Source: Halobacteriales archaeon QS_1_69_70
GTDB taxonomy: Archaea; Halobacteriota; Halobacteria; Halobacteriales; Haloarculaceae
Length of the DNA stretch: 64,000 bases
Assembly: GCA_003021005.1 (NCBI GenBank)
Contig: PXRI01000008.1
Location: 62,001 to 126,000, forward strand
Direction of reading: 5' to 3'
Position numbers and translations under genes: made by a program. The notes under the pieces are model-generated. The model searched no databases, was not told the origin of the DNA, and worked only from the letters and a program-made list of their open reading frames with translations. Within the stretch, counting starts at the first letter, position 1. Every line of letters starts with the position of its first letter. Positions 38,939-61,340 of the stretch are shown piece by piece.

Positions 38939-39949
38939 ATGGAACTCGAACCCATCGAACCCGAAACCGCAGTCGAACTGTACCTGGCCGACAGGGAACC
39001 GGAACTGAGAAGCGTGACACTGAACTCCCACCGCTCGCGGCTCGGCTTCTTCGTCGAGTGGTGTGCCGACCGCGGCATCGATAACCTGAACGAGCTGACA
39101 GGCCGGAAACTCAACGAGTACCGCCTCTGGCGCCGTAACGACGGCGACCTGGCGCCCGCCACCGAGAACTGCCAGATGGACACCCTTCGGGTCTTCGTCC
39201 GCTGGCTCGAATCCATTGACGGGGCACAGCAGGACCTCCACCAGAAGGTCCGCTCGCCCGCCGTCGGCCGCGACGAAGGCAGCCGCGACGAGATGCTGGA
39301 CGCCGAGGAGGCAGAGAAAGTGCTGACCTACCTCGAGACCTACGGGTACGCCTCGCCCCAGCACGTCACACTCGAGCTGCTTTGGCACACGATGCTCCGC
39401 CGCGGGGCCGCGCACGGCCTGGACGTCGACGACTACCACCCTGAGGACAAGTGTCTGGAGATACTCCACCGCCCGGAGACGGACACCCCGATCAAGAACG
39501 GGAAGCGTGGCGAGCGACTCCTGGCGCTCTCAGGGGACTTCTGCAACCTCCTCGATGACTACCTCCGACATAAACGGCACGACGTCGAAGACGACCACGG
39601 CCGCCGACCACTCCTCACGTCGGCCCGAGGCCGCCTGGGCCGATCGACCATCGGGAAATACTGTTATCGATATACCAGACCCTGTGAATACGACAACGAC
39701 TGCCCGCACGACCGCGATCCAGATGCCTGCGAAGCCGTGAATACCCGCAAGTGGTCTTCTTGCCCGTCGAGCCTCAGTCCGCACCCGTTCCGTCGCGGCA
39801 GTATCACGCACCAGCTCAAGGAAGATGTCCCGGAAACGGCTGTGGGGGGTCGGGCGAACGTGAGCCAGGATATCCTGGAGAAGCACTACGATCAACGGAC
39901 GAAGCGGGAGAAGATGGAGCAGCGACGGAAATATCTCAACAAGATATAA
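38939..39949 (+). CDS. tyrosine recombinase/integrase 1
   Basis: SAM-like N-domain, LRRGAAHGLDVDDY, HPFRRGSITHQL, HYDQRTKREKMEQRRKYL. Confidence 0.85.
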   Translation: MELEPIEPETAVELYLADREPELRSVTLNSHRSRLGFFVEWCADRGIDNLNELTGRKLNEYRLWRRNDGDLAPATENCQMDTLRVFVRWLESIDGAQQDLHQKVRSPAVGRDEGSRDEMLDAEEAEKVLTYLETYGYASPQHVTLELLWHTMLRRGAAHGLDVDDYHPEDKCLEILHRPETDTPIKNGKRGERLLALSGDFCNLLDDYLRHKRHDVEDDHGRRPLLTSARGRLGRSTIGKYCYRYTRPCEYDNDCPHDRDPDACEAVNTRKWSSCPSSLSPHPFRRGSITHQLKEDVPETAVGGRANVSQDILEKHYDQRTKREKMEQRRKYLNKI

Positions 39950-42866: not shown

Positions 42867-42875
42867 TAGGAAGCC

Positions 42876-45047: not shown

Positions 45048-47849
45048 TTACCCCCGAGCTTCGCTAACTAAATCTTCGAGGCTATTCAATGGAATAGGGT
45101 CTAAAGTGACCAGCTCATCGTCCGCCGTATAGTAGATACCTGGGAAGATGTCTCGATTTTCATACACCGAGGTCAGTACGTGGTGGTAGACGCTAAGTTG
45201 CTTCCGATATTCCTCATGACCTCGGCGGGTTGCGTCGGTCTTGTAATCGATTACCTCGACCCGGCCATTCGTGAGGTGTACGAGGTCGACGACGCCCGAG
45301 ATTGTCACACGACCACCATCCACTTCCAACGGGAGCCGGGCGGGTTGTTCGACCATTAATTCCCCCTCAAGACTGTCAATGAATGCCTTCACTCGCTTCT
45401 CATGGTGGTTAGATGGCGCAACCTCTTCACCGCTTGCGTATTCCTCGGCGAATTGGTGAACCTGATCCCCGAAGCTCGTCCCACCACCTTCCGAAGCTAC
45501 CGTCTCACCGGTGTCAACGTCGAAGATTGAGTCATCGATCAGGTCGTGCGGCGTGAGCCCTATCGGGCCAGCCGGCGGTTGGACCGAGAATGGCAGTTGT
45601 GCCTGGACGGTCTGATCCCGCTCGACTGGCTCGACGTCCGGCTGGACTGGCTGAACCTCGACGGGAAGTTCTTCGAGGAAGGTATTCCGCTCCTCCCCGC
45701 CGGCAAAGATGACGTGGCTTTCAGCCCGCGTAATTGCGACGTAAAGCAATCGACGTTCCCCGTCGTATCCTTCGGGGAGACAGTGTCTGAGGACGTCGTG
45801 TCGCCAGTTGTCGTAGACGTGCGGGTGGGCATCGATTTCGGCGTACTCCTTGCGTTGTCGGAGCCCAACCGGCTCCTCGTAGCGGACGATATCCGAGTTC
45901 CGTGACGAGGGCGGGAACCGGCCATCGTTCAAATTCGCGAGGATGACGTTCGGATACTCGAGGCCCTTGGCCGCGTGGATGGTTTGCACCGTGACCGAAT
46001 CATCGCCGGCACTTGTGTGGACCTCGTGGGTGGCCCCGTCCTCGATGGCGCCCTCGATGAACTGTATCAGGTCGCCACGAGTCATCGTGGTCGCGTCGTA
46101 CACCGACTGGATGGTGTGAAGGATGACGTCAGCGTAGTCGCCGTCGAAGCCGTACCGCGCAAAGACTCGGCGGGCGACCAGCAGCTCCTGGATTTCGTCG
46201 AGCGTGTAGCCGGCTCGTTCGAGCACGACCGCCCAGCCCCGGTCGGCGTCGGATTCCAGGATTCTGAGCCACGCAAGGAGGAGTTTGGCTTGGTCCGTCC
46301 GGAATAGTTTGACACCGCCGTCGTAGGACATCGGGAAGGCGAACTCCTCGGCCACCTGGAGCAGCTCACGACCGTAGTCTCTCGTCCGGGTGAAGACAGC
46401 GATATCGCCGTACTTCGGCGGTCGCGGGTCGCCGTCCTCATCCTCGATGGGATACCCCTCGTTCCCGACGATTCGTTGAATGTTAGAGAGGACGGCCTCG
46501 TGTTCATCCTCGTGCTGAACCGCTTCGATGTTCGTCTCGTCGAACGACGCATTCGATGACAGCGAGACGACGTCGTCGAGCACAGAGTGGTCAATGTCCT
46601 CGCCGTCGCTAGCTGGAGTGACGAGTGCCTCTTCCGAAAACTCGAGAATGGACGCCGTCGACCGGTAATTTTCCTCCAGTTCGATCCGGGTAACTTCGGT
46701 TGCGTCGAAGGCGACCCGCTGGGCGTCGTCGTTGAGTTCGGCGCGGAACCGGTCCAGGCGCTGTTTGAAGTCGGTGATGTTGGCCACGTCGGCGTACTGG
46801 AACGAGTAGATGCTCTGTTTCCAGTCGCCGACCACGCAGAGATTGTCGGTGCCGGCCAACAGGAGCGCGAGCTTGAACTGGATCTCGTTCGTGTCCTGGA
46901 ATTCGTCGATCATCACGTACTCATAGGCGATCCGCTCTCTGATGCCGTGATTTTCACACAGGAGCACGAACGCGAACAGTTGGAGAAACCCAAAGTTCAG
47001 GAAGTTACGGCCGAGCGCGAACTCGAGGTACTCGAAGAAGACATCGTGGACGAACTGCTTCAGGTGCTCGCGGTCCGCCTCGAAGACGCGGCGGGCGACA
47101 TCATCGTCGAGTTGCTTCGTGCCGCGGCCACCGCGAAGGTCGGCTTTCGACGGGGCGTCCGGCCGATACGTCTTGTTGCCGCCATACCGACTCAAGTCGC
47201 TACGGAGCTCGGACTGTTTCCGGCCACCATTCTGTGGCTGATTAACCTCGTCGAACAGCGTCCGGAACGCCTCGAAGTCGCCGTCGAGATGCGATTCGCC
47301 GTCCCGATACCAGCCGTCAGCGGTGGGGAAGATACCCTTCGCCGAGAGCTGCTTGACGAGCCCGAGGAGTTCCGAGTGATCGTCGATCGCTCGGAACTGG
47401 TCGGCGTACCCCGGGTGTGCGTCCCGGAACTGGCCGAGGAACTCCCGGAAGAGCTCCGCTTCGATGAGCTCATCTTCGAGAATGTTCGTGGAGCCGGTGA
47501 TGTGGTCGTCGATACCCAGATGGGTCGGAGCGCGAAAGCCGTGCTCATCGAGGATCGCATGGCAGTGGGCGTGGAACGTGCTGATCGGGGCATCGGCCAG
47601 TTCCCGAAGACTGTACCCCGATCGATCGACGATCCGTTCTTTCATCTCGAGCGCTGCGCTCCGCGTGAACGTCACGAGCAAGACGTCATCCGGGTCCACC
47701 TCGGGTTGGTCGACGATGTTCGCGTACCGCCGTGTAACGGCGAACGTCTTTCCGGTGCCGGCGCCGGCGTCGACGAGATAGAGGCCCTCGGTATTCTCGA
47801 TGAGTTGCCGTTGCTGCTCGTTCGGTTCGATGTCAGTCATCCCGCTCAC
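45048..47849 (-). CDS. UvrD/AddA-like helicase with C-terminal PD-(D/E)XK nuclease
   Basis: DAGAGTGKTFAVTRRYA, VTFTRSAALEMKERI, DEFQDTNEIQ, ENYRSTASIL, TIHAAKGLEYPNVIL, LLYVAITRAESH; GVVDLVH...VEVIDYKTD nuclease motif. Confidence 0.85.
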   Translation of the reverse strand: MSGMTDIEPNEQQRQLIENTEGLYLVDAGAGTGKTFAVTRRYANIVDQPEVDPDDVLLVTFTRSAALEMKERIVDRSGYSLRELADAPISTFHAHCHAILDEHGFRAPTHLGIDDHITGSTNILEDELIEAELFREFLGQFRDAHPGYADQFRAIDDHSELLGLVKQLSAKGIFPTADGWYRDGESHLDGDFEAFRTLFDEVNQPQNGGRKQSELRSDLSRYGGNKTYRPDAPSKADLRGGRGTKQLDDDVARRVFEADREHLKQFVHDVFFEYLEFALGRNFLNFGFLQLFAFVLLCENHGIRERIAYEYVMIDEFQDTNEIQFKLALLLAGTDNLCVVGDWKQSIYSFQYADVANITDFKQRLDRFRAELNDDAQRVAFDATEVTRIELEENYRSTASILEFSEEALVTPASDGEDIDHSVLDDVVSLSSNASFDETNIEAVQHEDEHEAVLSNIQRIVGNEGYPIEDEDGDPRPPKYGDIAVFTRTRDYGRELLQVAEEFAFPMSYDGGVKLFRTDQAKLLLAWLRILESDADRGWAVVLERAGYTLDEIQELLVARRVFARYGFDGDYADVILHTIQSVYDATTMTRGDLIQFIEGAIEDGATHEVHTSAGDDSVTVQTIHAAKGLEYPNVILANLNDGRFPPSSRNSDIVRYEEPVGLRQRKEYAEIDAHPHVYDNWRHDVLRHCLPEGYDGERRLLYVAITRAESHVIFAGGEERNTFLEELPVEVQPVQPDVEPVERDQTVQAQLPFSVQPPAGPIGLTPHDLIDDSIFDVDTGETVASEGGGTSFGDQVHQFAEEYASGEEVAPSNHHEKRVKAFIDSLEGELMVEQPARLPLEVDGGRVTISGVVDLVHLTNGRVEVIDYKTDATRRGHEEYRKQLSVYHHVLTSVYENRDIFPGIYYTADDELVTLDPIPLNSLEDLVSEARG

Positions 47850-50421
47850 CCTCTAGCAAAAGGTCGCGATGGTCGACACGGCGGTAGTTCGGTTCTCCGC
47901 CGGGGCCTTCGATCGGGAAGCACTCGGCACCGGCCCGCCGGTGGTTGATCTCCTCGATGCGGTCCGAGACGAACGCCTCGAACGCGTCGAGATCCTCCCG
48001 GAAGAACGCGCGTTTCCGAATCCCATTGAGTTCGCGGATCGCTTGGTCACAGCCCTTCTCGTCATCGACAGCCTCGCCGGTGGCTTTCAATATCGCCGCG
48101 GTGAACTCCTCGGCAAAGGCTGAGTCTCTGAGTTCTTCCTTGTCAGTCGTCTCCGGGAACGACAGGGACTCGACGGTATCCTGGTAAGTGGCGAATCCGA
48201 GGTCCTCAAACGTGGCAACACAGTCGTTGTATCCGTCCAGAAGGGCGTCATAGGCCTCTCGAGAGGCCACGAAGTCGTCGAAGGTCTCCGGATAGTATTC
48301 GATGGTCGTTAGGGCATCCTCGAGAGTCGCGTCGCCCGTGATGACGTCGTCGAGCGTCTCGAGGAAGTGGCAGAAGCTAAACTGAATACGTTGGTCAGGG
48401 TTCTCGCTTCGGAAGTGGCTCAGATACAAAGCCGCCTGGAAGTTCGGAGTGTCGGTAACAGGGTCGATCGACGACCGCTTCACTAACTTGTATGCGGACT
48501 TCTTGCTGCCGCTCTTGTAGTCGACGATGTGGTCGGCGGCCCGCACGAGGTCGATCTTGCCCTTGGCGCCGATGGCCGCGTTCTCGAACCAGCGTTCTGT
48601 GAGCGTGGAGTCGACCTCCAGCCCGAAGTGGTCGGCGACGACATTGTCGCCCCAGCCGGACGCCGGGGTGAGAAACGCCTGGCTCTCTGGCGGGTGGGCG
48701 TCCAGGTACTCGACGATGGTGTCGAGGCCGATCCGGTACTTCCGTCGGCGCAACGGTGCCTCATCATCGTGGAAGAACGAGCCGGCCTCCCGGAGCATCA
48801 AGTCCACGACGTCACGGATGGCGTCGTCGTCGACGCGGTCGGGGTGGTTGACGTAGAACTCCGCGAAGTCGTGGAACAGGTTCCCCTCCCGGAAGTAGTC
48901 CTTGTCGGGGCCGTCGAGTATTCGGCCGAAGAAGTAGTCCCGCGGGGAATTGACGTAGCTGTTGAGACTCGATTGGCTGATCGTCTCGATGGTGTCGGGC
49001 TCGACGCCGATGGGCTCCGTCTCGAATCGCTCCCCAGTCTCCTCCTCAGGGTGGGAGTGCTGCACCGACTCGAGATCGCTGAATCGTTCGAAGTCCTCAT
49101 CCAGAAGTTCTCCAAAGTACAGACAGGGCGTGACCGGCTGGCCGCCGGCCGTATCCTGGACGAGATAGTACTGCTCGGTCCCACTCTGCAGTAGGAGTTG
49201 GAACCGCCTGATGTAGCGTTCGAACTGGGCGTCGGTGTCGACCCAGGGGCGCTGTGGGGCGGCGTGGGTCCAGCCGTCGTCCAGGCCGAGATAGAAGACG
49301 GACGAGCGATCGACATAGCCCGACGACTTAGCATCGGCCAACAGCACGCCCTCGTTCTCGCGGTCCACGGGGACGTCGTACGTCTGGAGGTAGTATGCGA
49401 GGTTTTCGACTCGGTCCTGGGTGACAGTCGCCGTCGCGAGTCCGAGCTTGGACAGCTCTTCAGAGAATTGCTCAAGGTTACTTCCCGTCTCGGTCTCGAA
49501 GGCGGTCAGCGCCTCGTCGAACGTGGATTGCTCCACTGTCTCGCAGAAATCAGTGATCCACTGGACTTCCGGGACATCGACGCTGGTAAGCTGCTTTTCG
49601 TCGTGCTCGACCGGGACGTTTGCGCCCAAACGGGCGAGGACCGGCTTGGCATCGGTAACGGTCGTTTCGGAGCCGCGGAACGCCGTCCGGAGGAGTCGGA
49701 CGAACGCCCGATGGTCCGGGTGCTCAACGAACCCGGGACCACCGTGGTACGGGATATCATTCGCCTCGAGGGCGGATTCGACGAGCGAGGAATACCTACT
49801 CGCACTGTCGAGGACGACGGCAACGTCGTCGGCGTTCGCTGGGGTGACCGTATCGAGGAGCGCGTCGACGATGTCGGCCGAGGAGTCGAAGACATGGAAC
49901 GGCGGATGGTCGAACGGATCGTCGGTGAAGAGCTCGACGCGGTCGTACTCGGCCGGGAGGATCGACCGTTCGAGCTGGGTCAGTTGCTCGTAGCCGACGA
50001 CGGCGACGGCCTCATGTTCGTCGATTTCGTAGTCGGTCAGCTGTCCGGAGGTCGTCTGGATGTCTTCGATGATGTCGACGGCCGCCTCGGTGGTCTCGTC
50101 GGTGTAGGCGCCATATTCGAATATATCGTCGGCTGCGCCTTGATGCTCCCAGCACTGGAGGATATTCCCAATCGCGTAGGCGATCGCCTTCCAGGAGTGG
50201 TCGGTCCGGTCGACGACTTCGAGGAAGGCGAGGCGGTCTTCGGCCTGTTCTCGGCGGCCTGTCGCAAGTCGTCGGGGTGTGGTCGCGAAGGTGCCGAACT
50301 GAGATGCTGTGACGCGGCAGTTGATCGCATCGGCGAGAGGGTTGGCGGGAACGATGACCAGGTCGTGGTTTTCGACAGCAGAGTAGAGTGTCTGCAGATC
50401 CCTTGCTCGGCTAATTGACAC
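47833..50421 (-). CDS. AddB/RexB-like PD-(D/E)XK nuclease subunit
   Basis: 863 codons from GTG at 50421; ISQSSLNSYVNSPRDYFFGRIL, GNLFHDFAEFYV, GKIDLVRAADHIVDYKSG nuclease core; overlaps AddA-like start. Confidence 0.75.
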   Translation of the reverse strand: MSISRARDLQTLYSAVENHDLVIVPANPLADAINCRVTASQFGTFATTPRRLATGRREQAEDRLAFLEVVDRTDHSWKAIAYAIGNILQCWEHQGAADDIFEYGAYTDETTEAAVDIIEDIQTTSGQLTDYEIDEHEAVAVVGYEQLTQLERSILPAEYDRVELFTDDPFDHPPFHVFDSSADIVDALLDTVTPANADDVAVVLDSASRYSSLVESALEANDIPYHGGPGFVEHPDHRAFVRLLRTAFRGSETTVTDAKPVLARLGANVPVEHDEKQLTSVDVPEVQWITDFCETVEQSTFDEALTAFETETGSNLEQFSEELSKLGLATATVTQDRVENLAYYLQTYDVPVDRENEGVLLADAKSSGYVDRSSVFYLGLDDGWTHAAPQRPWVDTDAQFERYIRRFQLLLQSGTEQYYLVQDTAGGQPVTPCLYFGELLDEDFERFSDLESVQHSHPEEETGERFETEPIGVEPDTIETISQSSLNSYVNSPRDYFFGRILDGPDKDYFREGNLFHDFAEFYVNHPDRVDDDAIRDVVDLMLREAGSFFHDDEAPLRRRKYRIGLDTIVEYLDAHPPESQAFLTPASGWGDNVVADHFGLEVDSTLTERWFENAAIGAKGKIDLVRAADHIVDYKSGSKKSAYKLVKRSSIDPVTDTPNFQAALYLSHFRSENPDQRIQFSFCHFLETLDDVITGDATLEDALTTIEYYPETFDDFVASREAYDALLDGYNDCVATFEDLGFATYQDTVESLSFPETTDKEELRDSAFAEEFTAAILKATGEAVDDEKGCDQAIRELNGIRKRAFFREDLDAFEAFVSDRIEEINHRRAGAECFPIEGPGGEPNYRRVDHRDLLLEGERDD

Positions 50422-50552
50422 GGAACCGATAATGATTACAATCTGGTTAAATCTACGGGCTGAATCGGATAGTCCCCCAAACCGAATGGGTCCGTGGAGT
50501 TGGTCAGTTACACAGGGCAAATCTATTTCTCATTGTTGTGTAAGTTGGTACC

Positions 50553-52196
50553 ATGCACCTCCAGGAGCTCTTCGACGCCGACTGGAATTCGTACGAGCGA
50601 AAGCGATTCATCAAAGATGATCAGAAGACGAAAACGGACTCCTTTGATCCAGAATCGTTCAAGCACGATGGCTTCGACGACCGAGAAACTTACCTCGAAT
50701 CCCATGTCCCGGCTTTGGCAGAGGAGGAGCGATTGGCCGCCGAGCTGACGAACTTCACTCCACCACGATTACGCGATATCAATACGTCACCGTACCAGGC
50801 GCTGGTTATTCGCTATGCGATTCTTCAGACGTTGATACGGCAGCCGAACTTCGACATGCGCAAGCAAGACCTCCTCGATACCGTCCAAGAGTGGCAAGTT
50901 GAGATTATCGACGAGTACGAGGAGGGGGATTTTGACAAAACTGACCAGCTACTCCACCTCTCGCAGGCTGCCGTCGAGCACGACAATGACATCGACGATT
51001 CGGAACTCAACCTGATTTACCAATTCATGGAGTTCCACAACCACGCTCAGGATTGGAAACATGAGTATTACACCTGGGAGGATGTCTTCCGTAGACTGTC
51101 GACGATCGACCGATTCCCGAAGGTGTCTCGTTCCGAGAAGCCCGAGCACGCCATCGACACTATCGAGAAGGGCCTGTGGTCGCTGCAAGAACAAGCCATC
51201 GTCTACGAGATCGTCGATGACGAACGGGGAGACGTTGTCGGAATACCCGAAGATTACACCGGGTTCATCGCTGAGTGGCTCTGCTATGAGATGTCCGATA
51301 AGAACTACCTGACCATGCTGGAGGCGCTCGAACCATTCGATCGCCAGGGCTTGCTAATCGAGGTTTCGGAGACCTTCGGGATCGACCGAAAGAATCACGG
51401 GCGGAATGAAAAGCGTCGAGAGAACATCGTCGCCGAGGGGGTGTATCCGACGGACCTCTTCGAGGTTGTCCTGACGAAAGAGGACCTGAAAGCGGTCGTC
51501 GACCAGTTCGGCCTGGATGCACATAAGCGGAAGCGCGACGAGATGGTTGAGGCGACGATCGACTACTTCGAGCAATCCCAACGGGGCGTCGAGCCCGAGG
51601 CCAACAAGGTCGATCTGTTCCTGGAGTTCTACGACGAGATAGCCGACGGCAAGGTCGACGAGATTCCCCCACAGTTGCAGGGACTCGTCGACGAACCGAA
51701 CCAATCGAAGAAACTCGAAATCCTGTTCGAAGAAGCCACGGCGGAGCTCTTCCGAGAAATATTCACCCTCGACGGAACGGAGTTGCTCGGCCAGGGCGCC
51801 AGTGGGACGGTCGCGGATGGCGAGATCGAGCAGGACGGCAAGTGGCTCCTGTGGGACAACAAGCGGCGAACCGGGGAGTTCAAACTCGGGAGTACGACAC
51901 GCAGCAAGATCAAGAACTACATCGACACGAAGAACCAACAACACGACGTTCACTGGTTTATCATCATCGCTCCAGAGTTCGCTAACAGTGCCTTGGAGGA
52001 TGCCAACCTCATGGAGAAACACCTCGGCGGCGTCGACATTCGACTCGTCCAAGCCGATGACTTCCAGTCGCTGGCGCGATTCTGGCAGGACGAATTCGGC
52101 GAGACGACCAAGGAGTTCCCGCTGTCGATGTTTAACGGCTCGGATCTGTTGAATATCGATACGTTGACCCGGGCCTTGAAGAGGGAATTCTCATGA
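50553..52196 (+). CDS. protein with candidate C-terminal PD-(D/E)XK (FokI-like) nuclease domain
   Basis: LFEEATAELFREIFTLDGTELLGQGASGTVADGEIEQDGKWLLWDNKRRTGEFKLGSTTRSKIKNYI: D...x(n)...DNK pattern and downstream beta strand FIIIAPEF. Confidence 0.55.
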   Translation: MHLQELFDADWNSYERKRFIKDDQKTKTDSFDPESFKHDGFDDRETYLESHVPALAEEERLAAELTNFTPPRLRDINTSPYQALVIRYAILQTLIRQPNFDMRKQDLLDTVQEWQVEIIDEYEEGDFDKTDQLLHLSQAAVEHDNDIDDSELNLIYQFMEFHNHAQDWKHEYYTWEDVFRRLSTIDRFPKVSRSEKPEHAIDTIEKGLWSLQEQAIVYEIVDDERGDVVGIPEDYTGFIAEWLCYEMSDKNYLTMLEALEPFDRQGLLIEVSETFGIDRKNHGRNEKRRENIVAEGVYPTDLFEVVLTKEDLKAVVDQFGLDAHKRKRDEMVEATIDYFEQSQRGVEPEANKVDLFLEFYDEIADGKVDEIPPQLQGLVDEPNQSKKLEILFEEATAELFREIFTLDGTELLGQGASGTVADGEIEQDGKWLLWDNKRRTGEFKLGSTTRSKIKNYIDTKNQQHDVHWFIIIAPEFANSALEDANLMEKHLGGVDIRLVQADDFQSLARFWQDEFGETTKEFPLSMFNGSDLLNIDTLTRALKREFS

Positions 52197-52329
52197 GTCC
52201 GAACCTTCAGAATCCGAATTCGTTGTTTCCCACTCACCTGCATTAGACCTGTGAATGTACAGTATACGCCTGGATTAGATGGCCTGAAGAATAGTTTATG
52301 AACCTGGCGAAGGCAAACTTCGGTATTCA

Positions 52330-55300
52330 ATGACTTCGATGTTGTCTCTCGACCCTATCGTCGACAATTCCGAATCCACCCTCGAAGAAACGTACAAGAA
52401 GGTGATCCCACTCAGCGAAGAGATTCGGATTTCGACCGGCTACTTCTACCTCTCAGGATTCGACCTCGTCAAAGAAGACCTCGAACAGCTTGCCGACCCG
52501 GAGAAATTGGATCGAGCCCCAATGCGGATTCTGATGGGGAGGAAGACCGACCTTGCGACTGCCTCGGAAATAGAAGAAGGGATCTCGCTCCGGGACCAGT
52601 TCAAAGAGGAGCTAAAAGAGGATATTGCAGACCTGAATCAGGCTCAGGTTGAGCGATTAGACCGACTTCGGGACTTCATCGCAAACGAACTCATCGATGT
52701 CAGAATCAGAGTCCCTGACGACGGCTACTTCCACGCGAAAGGTGCGTGTTTCAGAGGCGTAGCCGACGACGAAGCAGAGAGGTCCGGAGAGACAGACACG
52801 CGAGCAGCTGTAACGATCGTCGGGTCCTCAAATTTTTCAGCGAGTGGGCAGCGAAGGAATATCGAGCTGAATATGACGAGTCAGGACCGGCGAGAAGCGG
52901 AAGCCTTCGAGGAGTGGTACGACAACCAGTGGGCCAACGCGGACGAGTTCAGCGAGGACGTCATCCAGATCATCGAAGGGAGCTCGAAATACCAGGAATG
53001 GAAGGATAAACAGGACGGTGAAACCGACGATGGGCCGGAACTCGGGACGTATCTCGAGCCCTTCGAGATGTACAAACTCCTGGCGTATGACGAATTGAAC
53101 GGGAACGTAAGCGTCCGAGATAGTCCACTCTACTACTTCCAGAAGCTTGGCTACGAGAGCGCCAAGGAGAAACTCTCGCAATTTAACGGGTGTATCATTT
53201 CCGACTCCGTCGGGTTGGGCAAGTCCTTCATCGGGAGCGAACTCCTCTACGATTACAGACAGCGGGGTGATCGATGTCTCCTCATCGTCCCCGCAAATCT
53301 CCAGGACCAGTGGATGGACCTACTCCAGGACATGACCGACGAGGACGGGAACCCGTACTTCGGCCTTGAAGTCGACGGGACTCATCTCGATCTGATGAGC
53401 ATCAACAAATTCCAGAATCTCTCCTATGAGGAGGTTCAAGAACTACGAGACGAGTTCGAGGTTCTGCTGATCGACGAAGCGCATCGCTTCAGGAATTCGG
53501 GCAAGTGGCGACCCAATCCGAAGCACGACGACGATTACAAGGGGACGAGACGCCACGCGAACCTCCGGCAACTCCGCGAGAAGACGATGATCATGTTGAC
53601 GGCCACGCCGATCAACAACAGCGCGACCGATCTGAAGAACCTCATCAGTCTCTTCACCAGCGCCGAGGAGCTTCGGAATAAAGCGTCGCTCGATTTCAGT
53701 GCCTTCGACGAGTACATTGATCTCTCCGAGACGCGAAAGCGCATCGCGGCGGGGAAGGAAGAGGTCAGCGAACGGGAGCAGGAGCAACTCACAGAGCAAC
53801 TCCAGCGACGGTCAGCAGAGATCTCAAACATTCTCAACGAGGTCATGGTCCTCCGGACGCGAAACCACGTGAAAGAGAAGATCCAGGAAGACGAAGACTT
53901 CAAGATGAGTTTCGAACCGCCTACGCTCCACAAGGAGCAGTACTCGCTTCCAGAGGCCTACCAGCCGATATATCGGATGCTCCCGGATGTAATGGACGCC
54001 CTCCACCTCCCTCACATTACGATCAAGAATCCCAAATCCGGTGGGACGCTCAAAGCGCTGTACAAACTCAATCTCCTGAAGCGGCTTGAATCGTCCACGT
54101 ATGCCTTCGTCCAGTCGGTCGAAACGCTCCACCAGAGCGAGCGGCAACTCCTTGGAATCCTCGATGGGGTGCCCGACGACGAGAAAATTGACGTGCTCCG
54201 GGAGGTGGGCGACGGTGACGCCCCGGCATCGATCGAGGACTTCGTGGACGGAGACGATGCAGCCGAAGACCTGGAGGAGACGCTGGAAGAGTTCGGGTTT
54301 GATTCGAGTGTCGTTCGAGCAGATGGTGGGGACGAGGAAACGGAGGACGAGTTGGCCGACGCCACCGTGGGCGAGGTGAAGCAGTACGTCCGGGAGGACC
54401 TGACCCTGCTTGCCTATTTCCTGTCGCAGTTCATCGGCGACGTCGCCTATGACGCCGGGGAGGTTAGTGACCACGCGGTTGCGACGAGACAGTGGCTGAC
54501 CGACCACAATGCTGGAATACTCCCCGAGGTTCCCGAAGAAGGCGAGGAGCCGATACTGTATCCGAGGAGCGATCTCAGTGATGTGGATGGGGGGACGCGG
54601 GAGTTCTACGAAGCTGTCTTCTCGCTCCGCGAGTTCCGTGATCCGAAGATCGACAAGCTTGCTGATGTCCTAAACGATCACGACAAGAAGGTCCTCATAT
54701 TCACCCAGTATCGGGCGACGGCGGACTACGTCTATCGGACGCTTCGAGATAACCCGGACTCGCCGCTCACCTCAGACAACAGCGCGGTGATCAAGGGTGG
54801 CGACGAGAACAAGCAGGACATTATCAAACGGTTTGCCCCGGAAGCGGCAGGCTATCAGCAAACCCTCGGCGAGTCCGGTGAGACTGAACTCCAGTATGTC
54901 GTCGCGACGGACACCCTGAGCGAAGGGGTCAACCTTCAGGATGTCCACGTTGTCGTGAACTATGATCTTCCTTGGAATCCGATGCGGATCGTCCAGCGCG
55001 TCGGTCGGATCGACCGCATCGGGAGCACCCAGGAGAAGCACGTCCACAACTTCTACCCCGATGGCGACATCGAGGCCGCGATCAAACTCCTGGAGCGATT
55101 GCAGGCGAAGATCAACGACATCGCCCTGATCGTCGGGAAGGAGAACAACATCCTCGATCCGAATGAGGACCAAATCCTCGGCCGAGCTGGGGTGGAGACG
55201 GAGAAGACCATAGGTGAGTTAGAGGTCGAGGAGATCGAGGAGTCCCTCCGGAAGTCAAGGGAGGTCGACGACGTTAACGAACTCGACGATACGAGCAAAA

Positions 55301-56133
55301 ATCCGCTCCTCAGGAACGCGGGGAGCAACGAGGATGCGGCCTTCGAGCGATACCTCCTCAAGCAGGAATTGAACGAGGACTACGGTCTTGAAGCCGATGA
55401 TTTCGAGTTCGCAGAGACCTTCTTCGAGGAGCCGGTTGCGGATCGTGATCTACTCTACACCAATGCGACAGACGTAGAGGCAGGGCCTCGACCAGGTGTG
55501 TTTGGATTGGCCCACCTCTGGTTCGAAGACGACGAAGACGCGCCACTCGGACGGGTCCGTCGGGCGTTCTACTACAAACCGTTCGGGAACGAGGTCAAAG
55601 AACGGCCGGTCCGGATGCTCGGACTCGAACCGGAATCGACCGGCGACCCCATCACTGCCGAGGACGACACGGAGCGGGTACTCGAAGAACGAGAAGCAAT
55701 CGACGACCTCGTCGACCAGCGGTTGGAGGCCGTCCGCGAGAGTCAGGTCGAGGGGGCATTCCTCCAGGGCGGGGAACACTCCAAGGAACAGGAAACGTTG
55801 ATCAGCTTCTGCAAGCAGTACATCGAACCCCGGTTCGAGGAGAAACCCGCCAGTGGAGAGTACGACTCGGTCAGCGAGCGGGCAGCGGTACTTCGAGATC
55901 GCCTGGGGGAAGTTGGGCTCAAGAACACAGACGAAGATCGGGTCCTCCGGAATCGATTCAGGCACAATAAAGACTACGAGACGCTCCCGGACTGGCCAGT
56001 CGAGGAGTTCCTCGACACGCTGGAGAGGTTTCTCGACGAATACGTTGTCGAGTCCACCGAATATCAGGAAACGCTCGTCGGGGAGAGCGAGATCGAGGCA
56101 CGGCTGATCTGCTGGGGTGTGATCGGTGCATAA
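52330..56133 (+). CDS. PLD-family nuclease fused to SNF2-type helicase
   Basis: PLD motif YFHAKGACF...VGSSNFSASGQRRNIELN; helicase SVGLGKSFIGSELLYDY, LLIDEAHRFRN, MLTATPINN, TDTLSEGVNLQDVHVVVNYDLPWNPMRIVQRVGRIDRIG. Confidence 0.88.
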   Translation: MTSMLSLDPIVDNSESTLEETYKKVIPLSEEIRISTGYFYLSGFDLVKEDLEQLADPEKLDRAPMRILMGRKTDLATASEIEEGISLRDQFKEELKEDIADLNQAQVERLDRLRDFIANELIDVRIRVPDDGYFHAKGACFRGVADDEAERSGETDTRAAVTIVGSSNFSASGQRRNIELNMTSQDRREAEAFEEWYDNQWANADEFSEDVIQIIEGSSKYQEWKDKQDGETDDGPELGTYLEPFEMYKLLAYDELNGNVSVRDSPLYYFQKLGYESAKEKLSQFNGCIISDSVGLGKSFIGSELLYDYRQRGDRCLLIVPANLQDQWMDLLQDMTDEDGNPYFGLEVDGTHLDLMSINKFQNLSYEEVQELRDEFEVLLIDEAHRFRNSGKWRPNPKHDDDYKGTRRHANLRQLREKTMIMLTATPINNSATDLKNLISLFTSAEELRNKASLDFSAFDEYIDLSETRKRIAAGKEEVSEREQEQLTEQLQRRSAEISNILNEVMVLRTRNHVKEKIQEDEDFKMSFEPPTLHKEQYSLPEAYQPIYRMLPDVMDALHLPHITIKNPKSGGTLKALYKLNLLKRLESSTYAFVQSVETLHQSERQLLGILDGVPDDEKIDVLREVGDGDAPASIEDFVDGDDAAEDLEETLEEFGFDSSVVRADGGDEETEDELADATVGEVKQYVREDLTLLAYFLSQFIGDVAYDAGEVSDHAVATRQWLTDHNAGILPEVPEEGEEPILYPRSDLSDVDGGTREFYEAVFSLREFRDPKIDKLADVLNDHDKKVLIFTQYRATADYVYRTLRDNPDSPLTSDNSAVIKGGDENKQDIIKRFAPEAAGYQQTLGESGETELQYVVATDTLSEGVNLQDVHVVVNYDLPWNPMRIVQRVGRIDRIGSTQEKHVHNFYPDGDIEAAIKLLERLQAKINDIALIVGKENNILDPNEDQILGRAGVETEKTIGELEVEEIEESLRKSREVDDVNELDDTSKNPLLRNAGSNEDAAFERYLLKQELNEDYGLEADDFEFAETFFEEPVADRDLLYTNATDVEAGPRPGVFGLAHLWFEDDEDAPLGRVRRAFYYKPFGNEVKERPVRMLGLEPESTGDPITAEDDTERVLEEREAIDDLVDQRLEAVRESQVEGAFLQGGEHSKEQETLISFCKQYIEPRFEEKPASGEYDSVSERAAVLRDRLGEVGLKNTDEDRVLRNRFRHNKDYETLPDWPVEEFLDTLERFLDEYVVESTEYQETLVGESEIEARLICWGVIGA

Positions 56134-56190
56134 CGTCGCCATCAAACGGGTGGATCCAACTCAGAACGAACCACCGCAGGGAGTCGATTC

Positions 56191-57078
56191 GTGACCAACG
56201 TACTGCCGTATCACATCGGGCCAGAAGATCGCTACTCGCTCGAGTTCGTCAATCCTGACGAAGGACAATGGAAAGAGCACCTCGCAGCGCGTACCACGGA
56301 GCGAGGAGTGGCGTTCAAGTCTCGGGAAGTCACCATCGAGACCGACGAGGGAATCCAGACACTCTACGCCGTGTACTCCGATGCCGTTCCAGAAACCGTC
56401 CTCGACGAGCAATCGGACGAGGAGATTCAGGCGATGTTGGACGAACAGTTTACCGAGGCTGAAATACAGGTGCTTAGTCTCATTCTCGACGTTTTCATCG
56501 GCATCACAAGGAAAGAAGAGGAGCAAACAGGCCGGTTTACGATCTACAAGGACATGAACCTCCTCAAAATTCCGCAGATCCTGGCCTATCCGGAGTGGGG
56601 CGAAGCATCAATCACTGATGTGGGTGGACAGCTCCTCTCTCGCTTCATCCTATCCCATCCGATGCCGAATGCAAATCACCGAAGCGCGCTCGGGCTCCTC
56701 GAACGATATCTTCGCTCACATGGCGACGGGCTCACGGTGCCGGACACCGGCGAACCTGGAATCTGGTACCAGTGGGCCCGACCATACATACACGATTCCA
56801 AGCGACTGTTGACCGTCCGCCGCAACGCTCACTTGTTTCGATATGCCAGAGAATTCGGTGTTGATATCATCCTCCGAAAGAACGACGTTGACATCGATCT
56901 CCACGACTTCGATCTGGACGTGGTAGACACCCTCGAGTCTTTCGGACAGACCCACGAGGATCGGAGTGTCGACTTCGTCGAGACGATTCTCGACCAGGCA
57001 GATGCCGATACGAAAAGGTTCGAAACGACGCAGGATCCAGGATTCGACGCCTTCGTCGACGCCTTGACGTCGGACTAA
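56191..57078 (+). CDS. protein with degenerate Fic/Doc-like motif
   Basis: SRFILSHPMPNANHRSALGLLERYL resembles HPFxxGNGR-type Fic motif; GTG start. Confidence 0.5.
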   Translation: MTNVLPYHIGPEDRYSLEFVNPDEGQWKEHLAARTTERGVAFKSREVTIETDEGIQTLYAVYSDAVPETVLDEQSDEEIQAMLDEQFTEAEIQVLSLILDVFIGITRKEEEQTGRFTIYKDMNLLKIPQILAYPEWGEASITDVGGQLLSRFILSHPMPNANHRSALGLLERYLRSHGDGLTVPDTGEPGIWYQWARPYIHDSKRLLTVRRNAHLFRYAREFGVDIILRKNDVDIDLHDFDLDVVDTLESFGQTHEDRSVDFVETILDQADADTKRFETTQDPGFDAFVDALTSD

Positions 57079-57185
57079 TCGGGAAGATCTGCCAGGTTTT
57101 CCCCAACCTCGCGTGCGCCACGACTCAGGTCAGAGCGGTCATCAGTCCGCTCTTGAACCGCGTTCCGAAGTTCCTCAAGTTCCAT
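57075..57185 (-). CDS. 36-aa small ORF, convergent with the Fic-like gene
   Basis: MELEELRNAVQERTDDRSDLSRGAREVGENLADLPD*; stop overlaps that of 56191-57078; tandem TTAGTAA elements upstream. Confidence 0.35.
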   Translation of the reverse strand: MELEELRNAVQERTDDRSDLSRGAREVGENLADLPD

Positions 57186-57235
57186 GGCTTTGTTCTACTT
57201 AGTAATGGTTAGTAAGTCAGACCACAAAACTCCCT

Positions 57236-57265
57236 AGGATATTTCTTCTTTGGAAGAAATATCCT
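57236..57265. terminator. perfect 13-bp inverted repeat hairpin (aggatatttcttc-tttg-gaagaaatatcct)
   Basis: Exact reverse-complement arms with 4-nt loop in the intergenic gap downstream of the MTase. Confidence 0.5.
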
Positions 57266-57319
57266 TGGCCAACTGCCACGAAGCCATACTTCCTTCAAAA
57301 TTCAACTAAGACAGTAAAC

Positions 57320-60300
57320 TTACGGCATTGGTCCCTTTGCTGCGAGCTCGTCGTACTTCTCAAGCACCATATCGAAGTATGCTTCGTCCATCAGCCGAGG
57401 GTTCTCGACGCGATGAAAATCATCTAGAATGAACTCAGTTTCTTCTGATTCAAGACCGTATGCATGGAAGGAAGCAGCGTCGATTTCAGCGCGTAGCTCC
57501 CGGCGTTCTCCAGTTTCTGTAGTAACATCGATTCTACCAAGGCGTTCACGCATCTCGGCGAATTCATCGCCATAACAATTCAAACGAGCCGCACGTTCAG
57601 AGATGTAATTGAACCAGTTATCATACTCCGTAAGACGGGGGAGTTGTGACTCGTTGAACTTGTACTGGACAATATGACTATCTACCTTTGTCCTCATTAG
57701 GTAATCAAAGGGGACACTGTTAAGCAGTCCCGCCAAGACGAATAGTTCCTTATCTGTAAAGGCCCTCTCATATGCACTATGCATCGGATAATTGCTCAAA
57801 TCCTCCTCAGTAGGATTTATGACATATGGTCGGATTGAACAAATGGTATGAACTGTTACTATGTCCTTCGGAAGTACACTCGCAATCAGGCTTCGTTCGT
57901 CGTCAGCTCTTGCTATATTCCGAACGCCAATTCGGTACTCCGTACAATCAAGTAATACATCCTCCTTTGAGAGTTCGCGACGCCCATGTTCTTCCAAGAG
58001 GTTATTGACAAATGATTTCTGTGAGCCACTTCCCCCGAACTTCAGATAGATCGACTTCTTTAGACTCGTGTCTGGGTCACGCGACCGGAAATTCTTCATC
58101 CTGACGCGATGTTTCGCGCTCCGTTCCGGTTCGTCTTCATCGACTCCCCAAAGAGAAATTGGGTCGAGATCAGTCTCGATTTCATTATCATAAGCATACT
58201 GATGAATGTTCTTCCCCTCATAAATAGGGTAGTCCCCTTCTTCCGGATCTTCGATAAGACGATCAGAATCGTTAGCGCGGTCGAGCTCCTTCATATAGAG
58301 AATGGCTTGCCAAGCGTCCTCGACTTCCTCGCCAATCGGAGGGAACTTTACCATTTTAGACAGCGCATCAATCAGCTCTTGGGACCGGAGATACGGGAAG
58401 ATTCCAGAGTTCGGAGAATATTTTTCTAAAACCTCAACGGGAACGTCTATAGATCCGCCATCGAATTCTTTGAGAATAGATAAATCACCAATACTAAATC
58501 TACCTTTTATATCATTAGTAGTTCCACTATTCTTGAAGGTACAGATACAGAATCGATATCGGTCGTCAAGCTCATCGAAAATTTGCTTATTCTGGAACTG
58601 AACAAGATGATTTAAACCATTTTCATTTAGAAGATACTGTCGAAGATTCTTTCCAGTCGCACCAAGGAAGAAGCTTCCGGGCATAATCTGGGTTACATAC
58701 GAGCTATCTTTGGCTAGTTGAGTGGTCCTTTCAAAGAAGAATAATGACAACTCATTTTCAGTAGCTACAGTTTTGCCATCAATGGAAGGTTCCTGCAACT
58801 CATATTCCGTGGTTGAATTGTAGTAGTCTGCTTTGAGTTCCATCTCCTGTTGGAACTCTTCCCACATTTCCCTAATCTGCGGGTCTTCAAGGAGCTCTTC
58901 CTGCTTCTTCTCTTTCTCTTTTGGTGGTCTTGTCCGAAATTGTTCATCGTACTTTGGGAAGAAATGCTCCCGGTCTATCGTGATAACGTCCCACGGGGGA
59001 TTGCCTATAATAACATCAAACCCGCCATCTCTGTACACAGGAGCGAATTCCAGGACCCAATGGAAAGGGTGATACTCCTGAAGATCGACCATATCAACCT
59101 CATCAATACCAGCGTCGTGGAATTGTTTCAGAACCTTCTCGTCTAACACTTCACTATGGGATTCAATTCTCGACTCCGCTAACTTCCGGGCGTTAGTTGC
59201 CTCTGTTCCGCTGGTAGCGTCTTGATGGCGCTCAATAGCTTCAATGACGTCCTCATACAGCTCTTGTACTCCAGGTCCAGTCCCTGCACCCCAGTTATTC
59301 AGTGAACCATCACCTGCCTCAGTAGCAACTTCAATGACTTCGGTAAACCCAATGAGGGAGTTCCCCTGCCGAATGTTGAAGTCAATGTTTGGCAACGGTT
59401 CCACCTCGCTAGGCTCGTCCTCAATATCGGCCACCATCGAGAGCCACAACCGGAGTTTGCAGATCTCGACTGCCCCGTCGTCGATATCCACACCATACAG
59501 ATTGTTGAGGATGATCTCCCGTTTCGCATAGAGTCGTTTCCCACCTCTCCGACTCTGAACGTGCTCCAATTCGTCCCTGGTCCGACTTGAGAGCTCCCAG
59601 GCCTGCCCCTGGGCTTCCAGTTCCTCAAAATACTCCAGACACTGGAGGTAAATGTCTAGTAACACGTCCTGGGCCGCCAGCAGGAAGGCACCGCTGCCCA
59701 CCGCGGGATCCAGCACGCGAATGCTCTGAAGAATGTCGAAATACAGCGTCTCCACGTGGTCCGTCTGGACGTCGCCCGTCGGCCCCTGCTGTGTCATCAT
59801 CCCCCCGTCGGTCGCGACAGCCTCACCCGAGGCGTCCGGAGCCGAGTCAATCAGCGCGAACACCTCGTCGATTTCCCCGTAATCGGCGTCGGCGGCCTCC
59901 TTGAGCTGGTCCAGAAGATACGGGTGAATGGACCGCCGGGCCATGAAGCCGGTGATCTCCTCGGGTGTGTAGTACGCCCCCATCTCCTTCTGGTTGACCG
60001 TTTGCTCGAAGATGTGCCCCAGCACGGCAGGCGAGAGGTTCTTGGGGTCGACGATGTCCAACCGCTCGTCAACGTTCCAGTTCCAGTCGGAGAGGAAATC
60101 CAGGATCTCGTCGAAGAGATCGTTAGTTTCCGCTGCCGACTCGCCGAGCCTGACGTCCGGGAACTCCTCTTCGACCGGATTGGTGGTGAACAGGCCACCG
60201 TTGAGGTACGGCAAGCTGCCGAAGTCAGGATCCTGTCCCCCTTCGGCGAGCAGATCGAAGAACAACGGGTCGTAGAAGTCCTCGTAAACGTCTCCACCCT

Positions 60301-60955
60301 GCTGGACGACCTGGTTATGGTGTTCGTGGAGGTATTCGGGGTTCCGGTCCAGGAGGCGTTTCTCCTGGATGAAGTACAGGAAGATCATCCGGTCGAGGGT
60401 GACCTGGACGTAGCGTCGCTTCGCGTCGCCACGATCGTCCGGGATCCCGCTCACTTCCTGCACGAGATCAGTTCGCAGGTCCTCGAAGTCCTCGTAGAAC
60501 CCCTTGACGATCTGCTGGGTGTCGTAGAGGTCGCCGTAGATGGCTGCGGAGGAGCCGTATTCGATCTGGTTGAGCTTCTGCAGGATGGTATTCTTCGCGC
60601 CGCTGTCGCTCGTGAACTGCGATTTGGTGAAGGTGAGCTTCTGGTGTTTGATCTGGCCGTGCTTTTGGCCGAAGGTCCGGACGCGGGTTAGGAAGGTGAA
60701 CTCCTCGAAGTCGTTGGTCGCGACGAGGTTGGTGTGGCGACGGTCGACGTCTTTCGGCTTGAAATCCGTTGCCGATTCGCCTGGGCCGGCATTGACAAGT
60801 TCGATAAACTCGTCGTCGGCGAGCTGGAGTACGAGTCGGTTTTCATTGCTCAACTTCGGGCGATGCCTGAGGCCCCGTTTCTCGAAAGACTCGGCGATCG
60901 CCTCCAGAGAATTCCATCCGGCAATATCGGAGGCGGTAATCTGCTCGGGGGGCAT
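57320..60955 (-). CDS. N6-adenine DNA methyltransferase, Eco57I/PglX/DrmMI-like
   Basis: MGAYYTPEEITGFMARR, VLDPAVGSGAFLLAAQDVL, YGVDIDDGAVEICKLRLWLSMV, FDVIIGNPPWDVI (NPPW motif IV); long C-terminal target-recognition-like region. Confidence 0.88.
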   Translation of the reverse strand: MPPEQITASDIAGWNSLEAIAESFEKRGLRHRPKLSNENRLVLQLADDEFIELVNAGPGESATDFKPKDVDRRHTNLVATNDFEEFTFLTRVRTFGQKHGQIKHQKLTFTKSQFTSDSGAKNTILQKLNQIEYGSSAAIYGDLYDTQQIVKGFYEDFEDLRTDLVQEVSGIPDDRGDAKRRYVQVTLDRMIFLYFIQEKRLLDRNPEYLHEHHNQVVQQGGDVYEDFYDPLFFDLLAEGGQDPDFGSLPYLNGGLFTTNPVEEEFPDVRLGESAAETNDLFDEILDFLSDWNWNVDERLDIVDPKNLSPAVLGHIFEQTVNQKEMGAYYTPEEITGFMARRSIHPYLLDQLKEAADADYGEIDEVFALIDSAPDASGEAVATDGGMMTQQGPTGDVQTDHVETLYFDILQSIRVLDPAVGSGAFLLAAQDVLLDIYLQCLEYFEELEAQGQAWELSSRTRDELEHVQSRRGGKRLYAKREIILNNLYGVDIDDGAVEICKLRLWLSMVADIEDEPSEVEPLPNIDFNIRQGNSLIGFTEVIEVATEAGDGSLNNWGAGTGPGVQELYEDVIEAIERHQDATSGTEATNARKLAESRIESHSEVLDEKVLKQFHDAGIDEVDMVDLQEYHPFHWVLEFAPVYRDGGFDVIIGNPPWDVITIDREHFFPKYDEQFRTRPPKEKEKKQEELLEDPQIREMWEEFQQEMELKADYYNSTTEYELQEPSIDGKTVATENELSLFFFERTTQLAKDSSYVTQIMPGSFFLGATGKNLRQYLLNENGLNHLVQFQNKQIFDELDDRYRFCICTFKNSGTTNDIKGRFSIGDLSILKEFDGGSIDVPVEVLEKYSPNSGIFPYLRSQELIDALSKMVKFPPIGEEVEDAWQAILYMKELDRANDSDRLIEDPEEGDYPIYEGKNIHQYAYDNEIETDLDPISLWGVDEDEPERSAKHRVRMKNFRSRDPDTSLKKSIYLKFGGSGSQKSFVNNLLEEHGRRELSKEDVLLDCTEYRIGVRNIARADDERSLIASVLPKDIVTVHTICSIRPYVINPTEEDLSNYPMHSAYERAFTDKELFVLAGLLNSVPFDYLMRTKVDSHIVQYKFNESQLPRLTEYDNWFNYISERAARLNCYGDEFAEMRERLGRIDVTTETGERRELRAEIDAASFHAYGLESEETEFILDDFHRVENPRLMDEAYFDMVLEKYDELAAKGPMP

Positions 60956-61252: not shown

Positions 61253-61269
61253 CGTTCGAAAACCGAACG
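61253..61269. promoter_or_regulatory. inverted repeat CGTTCG-N5-CGAACG, copy 2, abutting tRNA 3' end
   Basis: cgttcg aaaac cgaacg, exactly 80 bp from copy 1. Confidence 0.5.
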
Positions 61270-61340
61270 AGCCCGACGGGATTTGAACCCGCGACATCTT
61301 GGTCCGGAACCAAGCACTCTGTCCACTGAGCTACGGGCTC
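61268..61340 (-). tRNA. tRNA-Arg (anticodon CCG)
   Basis: GAGCCCGUAGCUCAGUGGACAGAGUGCUUGGUUCCGGACCAAGAUGUCGCGGGUUCAAAUCCCGUCGGGCUCG: 7-bp acceptor stem, CUUGG-UUCCGGA-CCAAG anticodon arm, GGUUCAAAUCC T-arm. Confidence 0.93.

What the first reader, a model, noticed from the sequence alone, without database searches (positions are those of the whole stretch)
45048..60955. Candidate undescribed multi-gene restriction/defence system: AddAB-like pair + candidate PD-(D/E)XK nuclease + PLD-SNF2 helicase + Fic-motif protein + N6A methyltransferase
Six sizeable genes fill the segment between the integrase region and tRNA-Arg(CCG), and nearly all are DNA-processing. Seen in sequence: UvrD-like helicase-nuclease and AddB-like nuclease (minus strand), candidate PD-(D/E)XK protein, PLD-SNF2 helicase and Fic-motif protein (plus strand), and a PglX/DrmMI-type adenine MTase (minus strand, convergent). 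Established knowledge: BREX uses PglX with PglZ/BrxC; DISARM uses an MTase with DrmA/DrmB (DUF1998), PLD DrmC and SNF2 DrmD. I see no PglZ, BrxC or DUF1998-like protein between 37 and 61 kb. Inference: a self/non-self modification system whose effectors are a PLD-SNF2 translocase and nucleases, perhaps with AddAB-like end resection as an integral component.
Basis: partly seen in the sequence, partly recalled or inferred. Interest (0 to 1): 0.88.

Follow-up and report, generated by a model that had tools for sequence, protein, structure and literature searches.

The report
Two-gene archaeal restriction system, switchable relatives
The six neighbouring genes are not one machine: only two of them, a DNA-cutting motor and a DNA-marking enzyme, always travel together as a salt-loving archaeon's anti-virus system, and in many relatives a small recombinase flips a DNA segment so that the marking enzyme alternates between two versions that probably recognise different sequences.

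Summary
They are cargo of a ~22.5-kb integrative element in tRNA-Arg(CCG) (17-bp att repeat, 38810 / 61265). In 16 other haloarchaeal genomes, and in ~20 distant bacterial or methanogen loci, only the PLD-SNF2 nuclease-helicase and the Eco57I-type N6A methyltransferase stay together. AddAB-like, FokI-like and Fic-like genes do not follow the pair. AddB-AddA is a separate two-gene unit, sometimes beside restriction genes (5/20 loci versus 0/19 controls).

Following the pair revealed something undescribed in the literature I could search. In at least 15 loci of relatives, mostly circular plasmids, the methyltransferase has two divergent C-terminal (target-recognition) halves. Between them lies one promoter/N-terminal segment bounded by 25-80-bp inverted repeats, with a tyrosine recombinase alongside (15/16 two-half loci; 0/22 single-half loci). 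Near-identical plasmids carry the segment in opposite orientations. In-silico inversion gives a second full-length enzyme in 10/14. Silent halves are under purifying selection (Ka/Ks ~0.05-0.13). The recombinase is ~40% identical to Int1 of haloviruses phiH/phiCh1, which flips tail-fibre genes.

The window itself carries the fixed, single-specificity form. Function is inferred; no activity was tested.

The parts
52330..56133 (+). PLD (HKD)-SNF2 nuclease-helicase, 1267 aa: predicted restriction effector/translocase (core gene 1)
   Evidence: Pfam PLDc_2, SNF2-rel_dom, Helicase_C; catalytic motifs invariant; found in 16 other relatives and 71 loci of named genomes
52417..52932 (+). PLD nuclease domain (single HKD motif: H135, K137, GSSN 165-168)
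   Evidence: PLDc_2 residues 30-201; invariant columns in A1
57320..60955 (-). Eco57I-type N6-adenine methyltransferase with target-recognition region, 1211 aa (core gene 2)
   Evidence: Pfam Eco57I; convergent neighbour of PLD-SNF2 in 16/16 relatives
59648..60955 (-). MTase N-terminal part (aa 1-436): homologous to the segment that is invertible in plasmid-borne relatives; NOT invertible here
   Evidence: inverted-repeat borders at codons ~437-454 in relatives; no second C-terminal half and no recombinase of that family in this genome
57806..59338 (-). hypervariable, presumed target-recognition region of the MTase (aa ~540-1050)
   Evidence: alignment A2 conservation falls here while N- and C-terminal ends stay conserved; two halves within one locus are 26-58% identical over most of it
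38810..38826 (.). attL-like copy of tRNA-Arg 3' end, left border of the integrative element
   Evidence: 17-nt exact repeat
61265..61281 (.). attR-like copy, in tRNA-Arg(CCG) 3' end, right border
   Evidence: 17-nt exact repeat; tRNA
38939..39949 (+). tyrosine integrase of the element (element gene, not part of the restriction pair)
   Evidence: Phage_integrase/XerD hits; 113 bp from attL
45048..47849 (-). cargo: AddA-like UvrD helicase + PD-(D/E)XK; separate conserved pair with AddB
47833..50520 (-). cargo: AddB-like PD-(D/E)XK nuclease; separate conserved pair with AddA
50553..52196 (+). cargo: candidate FokI-like nuclease, 547 aa; rare (2 full-length relatives in 150 genomes) and with other neighbours there
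56191..57078 (+). cargo: Fic-like motif protein inserted between the two core genes only in this window

Best explanation
The segment is the cargo of an integrative element in tRNA-Arg. Its real system is a two-gene restriction-modification unit: an N6-adenine methyltransferase that carries its own target-recognition region, and a convergent PLD-SNF2 protein. Most likely the MTase marks self DNA at a specific site. On unmarked foreign DNA the MTase, or a complex of both proteins, recognises the same site, and the SNF2 motor translocates and lets the PLD domain cut. In many plasmid-borne relatives the unit is a two-state specificity switch. One promoter plus N-terminal (catalytic motif I) segment lies between inverted repeats and two divergent C-terminal halves. 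A dedicated tyrosine recombinase, from the family of the halovirus Int1 tail-fibre invertase, flips the segment so that one or the other full-length MTase is made. Shown by sequence: the pairing, the architecture, both orientations, in-frame alternative products, and selection on the silent halves. Inferred: defence activity, coupling of cutting to methylation, and that the halves recognise different sites. The window's own copy is the fixed form, with one C-terminal half and no recombinase of this family.
For: Pairing: MTase beside PLD-SNF2 in 16/16 relatives, plus a relative of it beside about 20 loci at 22-38% identity in bacteria and methanogens; Pfam confirms PLD+SNF2 beside Eco57I MTase in three distant loci, two with TaqI_C. 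Independence from BREX-like partners: PglZ absent from 7/14 genomes and DUF499 from 12/16. Switch: two C-terminal halves plus recombinase in 15 loci, 0/22 single-half loci with the recombinase. Exact inverted repeats. Closed plasmids of two Halobaculum strains are 96.8% identical and colinear except that the segment 15125-16593 is inverted exactly at the repeat edges; the same for Halobaculum saliterrae versus Halorubrum salipaludis. Alternative full-length ORF after in-silico inversion in 10/14. Ka/Ks 0.05-0.13 for silent-silent pairs. Recombinase ~39-41% identical to Int1 of phiH, phiCh1 and ChaoS9; the phiH and phiCh1 records note an 'invertible segment involved in tail fiber protein switching' (inversion in phiCh1 described in PMC4284463). 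Element: att repeats.
Against: No activity, methylation or restriction data. The window copy lacks the switch, so the novel part lies outside the window. Target change is inferred from divergence in the presumed recognition region only. Draft contigs ending at the repeats do not prove mixed populations, because short-k assemblers break at such repeats anyway. Orientation differences are between strains or species, or between two copies in one genome; inversion within one clone was not observed. The N-terminal MTase model was too poor (pLDDT 51) to exclude a hidden nuclease.
Confidence: 0.75

Rival explanations
1. All six genes form one new defence system, with AddAB resecting the ends made by the PLD-SNF2/MTase pair.
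For: Physical proximity in the window; AddAB lies next to restriction helicases or MTases in 5/20 loci versus 0/19 control windows; Natrialba taiwanensis has AddBA directly beside an invertible copy of the pair; G069 has AddAB beside a distant PLD-SNF2/MTase pair.
Against: AddA, AddB, FokI-like and Fic-like genes absent around PLD-SNF2 in 16/16 relatives. AddB occurs in 53/151 genomes; in the genomes that have both genes the two lie on other contigs or megabases apart. FokI-like relatives have other neighbours.
Confidence: 0.07
2. The pair is a degenerate BREX, DISARM or BREX-related (Type-2 BR) system, with its missing partners elsewhere in the genome.
For: HKD-Swi2/Snf2 helicase plus N6-MTase is the effector/marker pair of published Type-2 BR systems (PMC12839542); MTase and SNF2 score against DrmMI/PglX and DrmD/BrxH models.
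Against: DUF499 ATPase, a core of BR systems, is absent from 12/16 carrier genomes and never near the pair in the rest. PglZ is absent from 7/14. The same two genes recur alone, adjacent, across phyla.
Confidence: 0.12
3. The doubled C-terminal halves are dead remnants of gene duplication or gene conversion rather than a working switch.
For: Some halves are broken by IS elements or frameshifts (L202, L203, L206, L153).
Against: Intact silent halves in most loci with Ka/Ks 0.05-0.13; both orientations in near-identical closed plasmids with breakpoints exactly at the repeats; recombinase present only with two halves.
Confidence: 0.07
4. The MTase/PLD-SNF2 pair mainly serves plasmid or element maintenance (addiction) or epigenetic gene regulation, not virus defence.
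For: Most invertible copies are on large circular plasmids; MTase switching is known to drive phasevarions in bacteria (PMC7394358, PMC4948785).
Against: Nuclease-helicase partner conserved with intact catalytic motifs; neighbours on plasmids include TIR, SAVED and DUF262 genes typical of defence islands. Not exclusive with defence.
Confidence: 0.25

Closest known systems
Type-2 BREX-related (BR) systems (PMC12839542, NAR 2026)
   Same: HKD(PLD)-Swi2/Snf2 helicase effector plus N6-MTase, proposed to act like restriction-modification
   Different: BR systems have a DUF499 ATPase core and DUF3780; DUF499 is not beside this pair and most carrier genomes lack it (DUF3780 not searched genome-wide). 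The paper's text mentions no inversion, recombinase or phase variation
Phase-variable Type I R-M with hsdS inversion (SpnIII and others; PMC4948785, PMC7394358)
   Same: inverted repeats plus a locus-encoded tyrosine recombinase switch DNA-methylation specificity between intact alternatives
   Different: there separate S-subunit genes recombine; here the promoter and N-terminal catalytic third of a single-chain MTase flips between two C-terminal halves, in archaea, with a PLD-SNF2 partner
BREX pglX inversion (recalled from the original BREX description; not held in the library)
   Same: switching of a PglX-type MTase by inversion has been suggested in some bacterial BREX loci (from memory, untested here)
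   Different: no PglZ/BrxC here; archaeal plasmids; relation of the recombinases untested
Halovirus phiCh1/phiH Int1 tail-fibre inversion (PMC4284463)
   Same: related tyrosine recombinase (~40% identity) flipping a segment so that 3' ends of genes are exchanged
   Different: viral host-range switch whose invertible segment contains the recombinase gene; here the recombinase lies outside the segment and the target is a methyltransferase
DISARM / ARMADA (PMC9142583; PMC12458937)
   Same: SNF2-type helicase and PglX/DrmMI-like MTase; DISARM also has a PLD protein
   Different: no DrmA/DrmB or YprA-like helicase in the locus; PLD fused to SNF2

Membership tests
BREX | PglZ plus BrxC/PglY with PglX | tested here: not met
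   none among the ten large ORFs of the island; PglZ absent from the window's genome (82% complete) and six more of 14 carrier genomes
DISARM | DrmA helicase and DrmB (DUF1998) with MTase | tested here: not met
   no such domain among the ten large ORFs of the island; MZB/DUF1998-type helicases found elsewhere in every genome are not near the pair and are also in control genomes
[quoted passage not shown]
   definition from PMC12458937; no third helicase conserved around the pair
Type-2 BR (BREX-related) | DUF499 ATPase | tested here: not met
   absent from 12/16 carrier genomes; elsewhere not adjacent
Type-2 BR (BREX-related) | HKD fused N-terminally to Swi2/Snf2 helicase plus N6-MTase | tested here: met
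Type-2 BR (BREX-related) | DUF3780 protein | not tested
   not searched for genome-wide; no Pfam hit for it among the ten large ORFs of the island
Type IIG restriction enzyme | nuclease domain in the MTase polypeptide | tested here: inconclusive
   PADLOC Type IIG models match the MTase part best; no Pfam nuclease domain; no canonical D...(E/D)xK pattern evident in invariant N-terminal columns; model of aa 1-440 too poor
Type I / Type ISP R-M | motor-driven cleavage at a distance from an unmethylated site, specificity supplied by S subunit/TRD | not testable with these tools
   no HsdS; motor and nuclease motifs intact; needs biochemistry
Inversion-switched (phase-variable) R-M | inverted repeats, two alternative specificity sequences, linked recombinase, both orientations observed | tested here: met
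   met for at least 15 loci of relatives; not met for the window's own copy
Inversion-switched (phase-variable) R-M | methylation motif changes with orientation | not testable with these tools
   needs m6A calling
AddAB/RecBCD | AddA (UvrD + PD-(D/E)XK) with AddB partner | tested here: met
   PF00580, PF13361, PF12705 in AddA and PF12705 in AddB; pair conserved in 20/20 loci; AddB helicase-like part not confirmed

The most novel reading that the evidence does not exclude
Haloarchaeal plasmids carry a programmed two-state switch of restriction specificity, built from a two-gene PLD-SNF2/MTase system and an invertase homologous to the one that haloviruses use to switch tail fibres. Host and virus would then use the same recombinase family on both sides of the arms race, and populations would be mixtures of two restriction phenotypes. 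The tree suggests the switch was gained or lost several times (at least five changes forced), with two different crossover sites (codons ~437-454 and ~488-513).
Probability: 0.6. Interest if true: 0.8.

Novelty: new variant of a known kind. Interest (0 to 1): 0.64.

Why it matters
Phase-variable restriction by DNA inversion is documented in bacteria. I found no report of it in archaea in the searchable literature: a 2018 survey saw no inversions in six archaeal data sets (PMC5903667), and a 2026 review attributes specificity switching to Type I hsdS (PMC13076061). If the switch works, haloarchaea hedge their restriction specificity, probably against viruses that themselves switch tail fibres with a related invertase. 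It also gives a minimal two-gene R-M unit with a PLD-SNF2 effector, found from methanogens to Bacteroidota, that current annotation splits into 'helicase-related protein', 'DNA methyltransferase', fragmentary 'PglX' and 'site-specific integrase'. Draft assemblies of such genomes also often end their contigs at these repeats.

Tried and rejected
Six-gene system: rejected by neighbourhood comparison. Known BREX/DISARM/ARMADA/BR membership: rejected by missing core genes; the MZB search was uninformative because all genomes carry it. The window's integrases as invertases of the MTase: rejected, because they are unrelated to the recombinase by BLAST, lie >13 kb away, and there is no second MTase half. 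Contig breaks as proof of mixed populations: downgraded, since the 21-54 bp overlaps could be assembler k-mers. Structure of the MTase N-terminus: too poor to use. Foldseek of the Fic-like protein: only weak Doc hits (TMt 0.42-0.45, E>1), so Fic stays a motif-level call. Other homologues of the recombinase at 37-66% identity: no clear inverted repeats found beside them. Two papers wanted for comparison are not held. The FokI-like protein as partner: rejected, its relatives sit in other neighbourhoods.
Full report
Observation. The MTase is closest to PADLOC Type IIG models (4e-70) and more weakly to DrmMI (3e-31) and PglX (1e-12). The 547-aa protein has only a sub-threshold FokI-like hit. The Fic-like motif is invariant in relatives, but the fold match to Doc is weak. 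The block lies in an integrative element. A 17-nt exact repeat of the tRNA-Arg(CCG) 3' end is at 38810 and 61265; an integrase starts 113 bp from the left copy; GC falls from about 0.70 outside to 0.39-0.62 inside.

Do the six genes belong together? PLD-SNF2 relatives were sought in 150 related genomes: 16 have one at 59-75% identity. About 36 kb around each was fetched where the contig allowed and searched with all window proteins. The MTase is convergent and next to, or within a few genes of, PLD-SNF2 in 16/16. AddA, AddB, the FokI-like and the Fic-like genes are in 0/16. Clustering all ORFs gave the same answer: only these two families occur in every neighbourhood, while variable cargo sometimes sits between them. 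A scan of one genome per species returned 71 named loci. Beyond the haloarchaeal clade, the pair recurs in tandem at 22-38% identity in Methanobrevibacter, Bacteroidota, Acidobacteria, Leptospiraceae, Thermotoga, Sulfurihydrogenibium, Dehalococcoidia and others. Three of these pairs were confirmed by Pfam as PLD-SNF2 plus Eco57I MTase, two with a TaqI-like specificity domain.

What the other genes are. AddB relatives occur in 53 of 151 genomes, with AddA overlapping or adjacent in 20/20 loci examined. Restriction helicases or MTases lie within about 9 kb in 5/20, versus 0/19 windows shifted by 150 kb. In Natrialba taiwanensis the AddBA pair is directly beside an invertible copy of the restriction pair. 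So AddAB is an independent module with a mild taste for restriction loci. The FokI-like protein has two full-length relatives in other settings. Fic-like relatives are common, but only the window has one between the core genes.

The switch. The MTase search showed that several relatives have a full MTase gene beside an inverted C-terminal half, or contigs that end at one exact codon range. In Halosimplex salinum a 1,575-bp contig holding the promoter and aa 1-454 begins and ends with the same 54-bp inverted repeat, and overlaps both ends of a 99.5-kb contig, each end carrying a different C-terminal half (names). A tyrosine recombinase of 222-234 aa lies just beyond the far half. In closed plasmids the layout is [PLD-SNF2 >][< C-half B | <N-segment> | C-half A >][< recombinase]. 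Of loci with enough sequence, 16 have two halves, 15 of them with the recombinase (the sixteenth, DL31, is disrupted by transposons but has an annotated integrase family protein beside it); 22 loci with one half have none.

Evidence that it flips. Halobaculum sp. CBA1158 and XH14 plasmids are 96.8% identical over 14 kb up to 15125 and colinear again after the switch region, while the segment 15125-16593 between the repeats is inverted; the same holds for CBA1158 versus Natronomonas gomsonensis and for Halobaculum saliterrae versus Halorubrum salipaludis, and between the two copies in H. saliterrae. In-silico inversion yields an intact alternative MTase of 1203-1218 aa in 10 of 14 loci; the others have broken halves or a damaged N-terminal frame. 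The two halves share 70-92% identity over the first ~100 residues and 26-58% over most of the following ~500, the same span that is hypervariable between species. Silent halves have Ka/Ks of 0.05-0.13, like expressed ones, so they are regularly exposed to selection. Some silent halves are broken by IS elements, showing decay also happens. The recombinase is 39-41% identical to Int1 of haloviruses phiH, phiCh1 and ChaoS9; the phiH and phiCh1 records note an invertible segment for tail-fibre switching, and inversion in phiCh1 is described in PMC4284463.

Evolution. On a PLD-SNF2 tree the switch is clustered but not single: at least five gains or losses are forced by well-supported branches. Two site classes exist, at codons ~437-454 and ~488-513. 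The window belongs to a separate lineage with a single fixed MTase, and its genome has no recombinase of this family.

Mechanism, shown and inferred. Shown: conserved pairing; intact nuclease, helicase and methyltransferase motifs; inversion architecture and both states. Inferred: the MTase methylates adenine at a site set by its C-terminal half; PLD-SNF2 cuts unmethylated DNA guided by the same recognition; flipping changes the site. How cells survive the change of specificity before remethylation is unknown; Type I hsdS-inverting bacteria face the same problem.

Comparison. Type-2 BREX-related systems (PMC12839542) use a similar HKD-Snf2/N6-MTase couple but include a DUF499 ATPase as core, which is missing from 12 of 16 carrier genomes. 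DISARM, BREX and ARMADA cores are absent. Phase-variable R-M by inversion is known for Type I hsdS (PMC7394358, PMC4948785); a suggested PglX inversion in bacterial BREX is recalled from memory and could not be checked. No archaeal case turned up in ten literature searches of an open-access library, which does not exclude one in subscription journals.

Verdict.

Noticed in passing
window 38939-43772: Two tyrosine integrases, 51% identical and in opposite orientation, bracket a low-GC (~0.39) pair: a 346-aa protein with a weak NA37 hit and a 571-aa protein with no family. Possibly a nested element.
   Followed up: no
L159:20649-23812 and window 45048-50520: AddBA-like pair sits beside the PLD-SNF2/MTase system in two unrelated haloarchaea. 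In other genomes it is next to HsdR, SNF2 or (Natronomonas gomsonensis chromosome) a DUF499 ATPase: a widespread, patchy archaeal AddAB-like module near restriction loci.
   Followed up: partly
L140 and L153 (Halorussus aquaticus plasmid NZ_CP100403.1): One plasmid carries two copies of the invertible locus; Halobaculum saliterrae has two copies in opposite orientations.
   Followed up: partly
L157 (PUKE01000032.1, 'Nitriliruptoria bacterium' MAG): The contig encodes a PLD-SNF2/MTase pair 54-76% identical to the window's haloarchaeal one and groups with Halobellus in the tree; probably a binning contaminant in a bacterial MAG.
   Followed up: no
L222:7802-8473 (G046:C30) and G133:C7:32196-32855: Recombinases 59-66% identical to the MTase invertase in other contexts without detected inverted repeats (one between 902- and 930-aa ORFs); what they flip, if anything, is unknown.
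   Followed up: partly
L144, L147, L154, L150 (single-MTase relatives): The gap between the convergent PLD-SNF2 and MTase genes is used as an insertion spot for varied extra genes, as the Fic-like gene is in the window.
   Followed up: no
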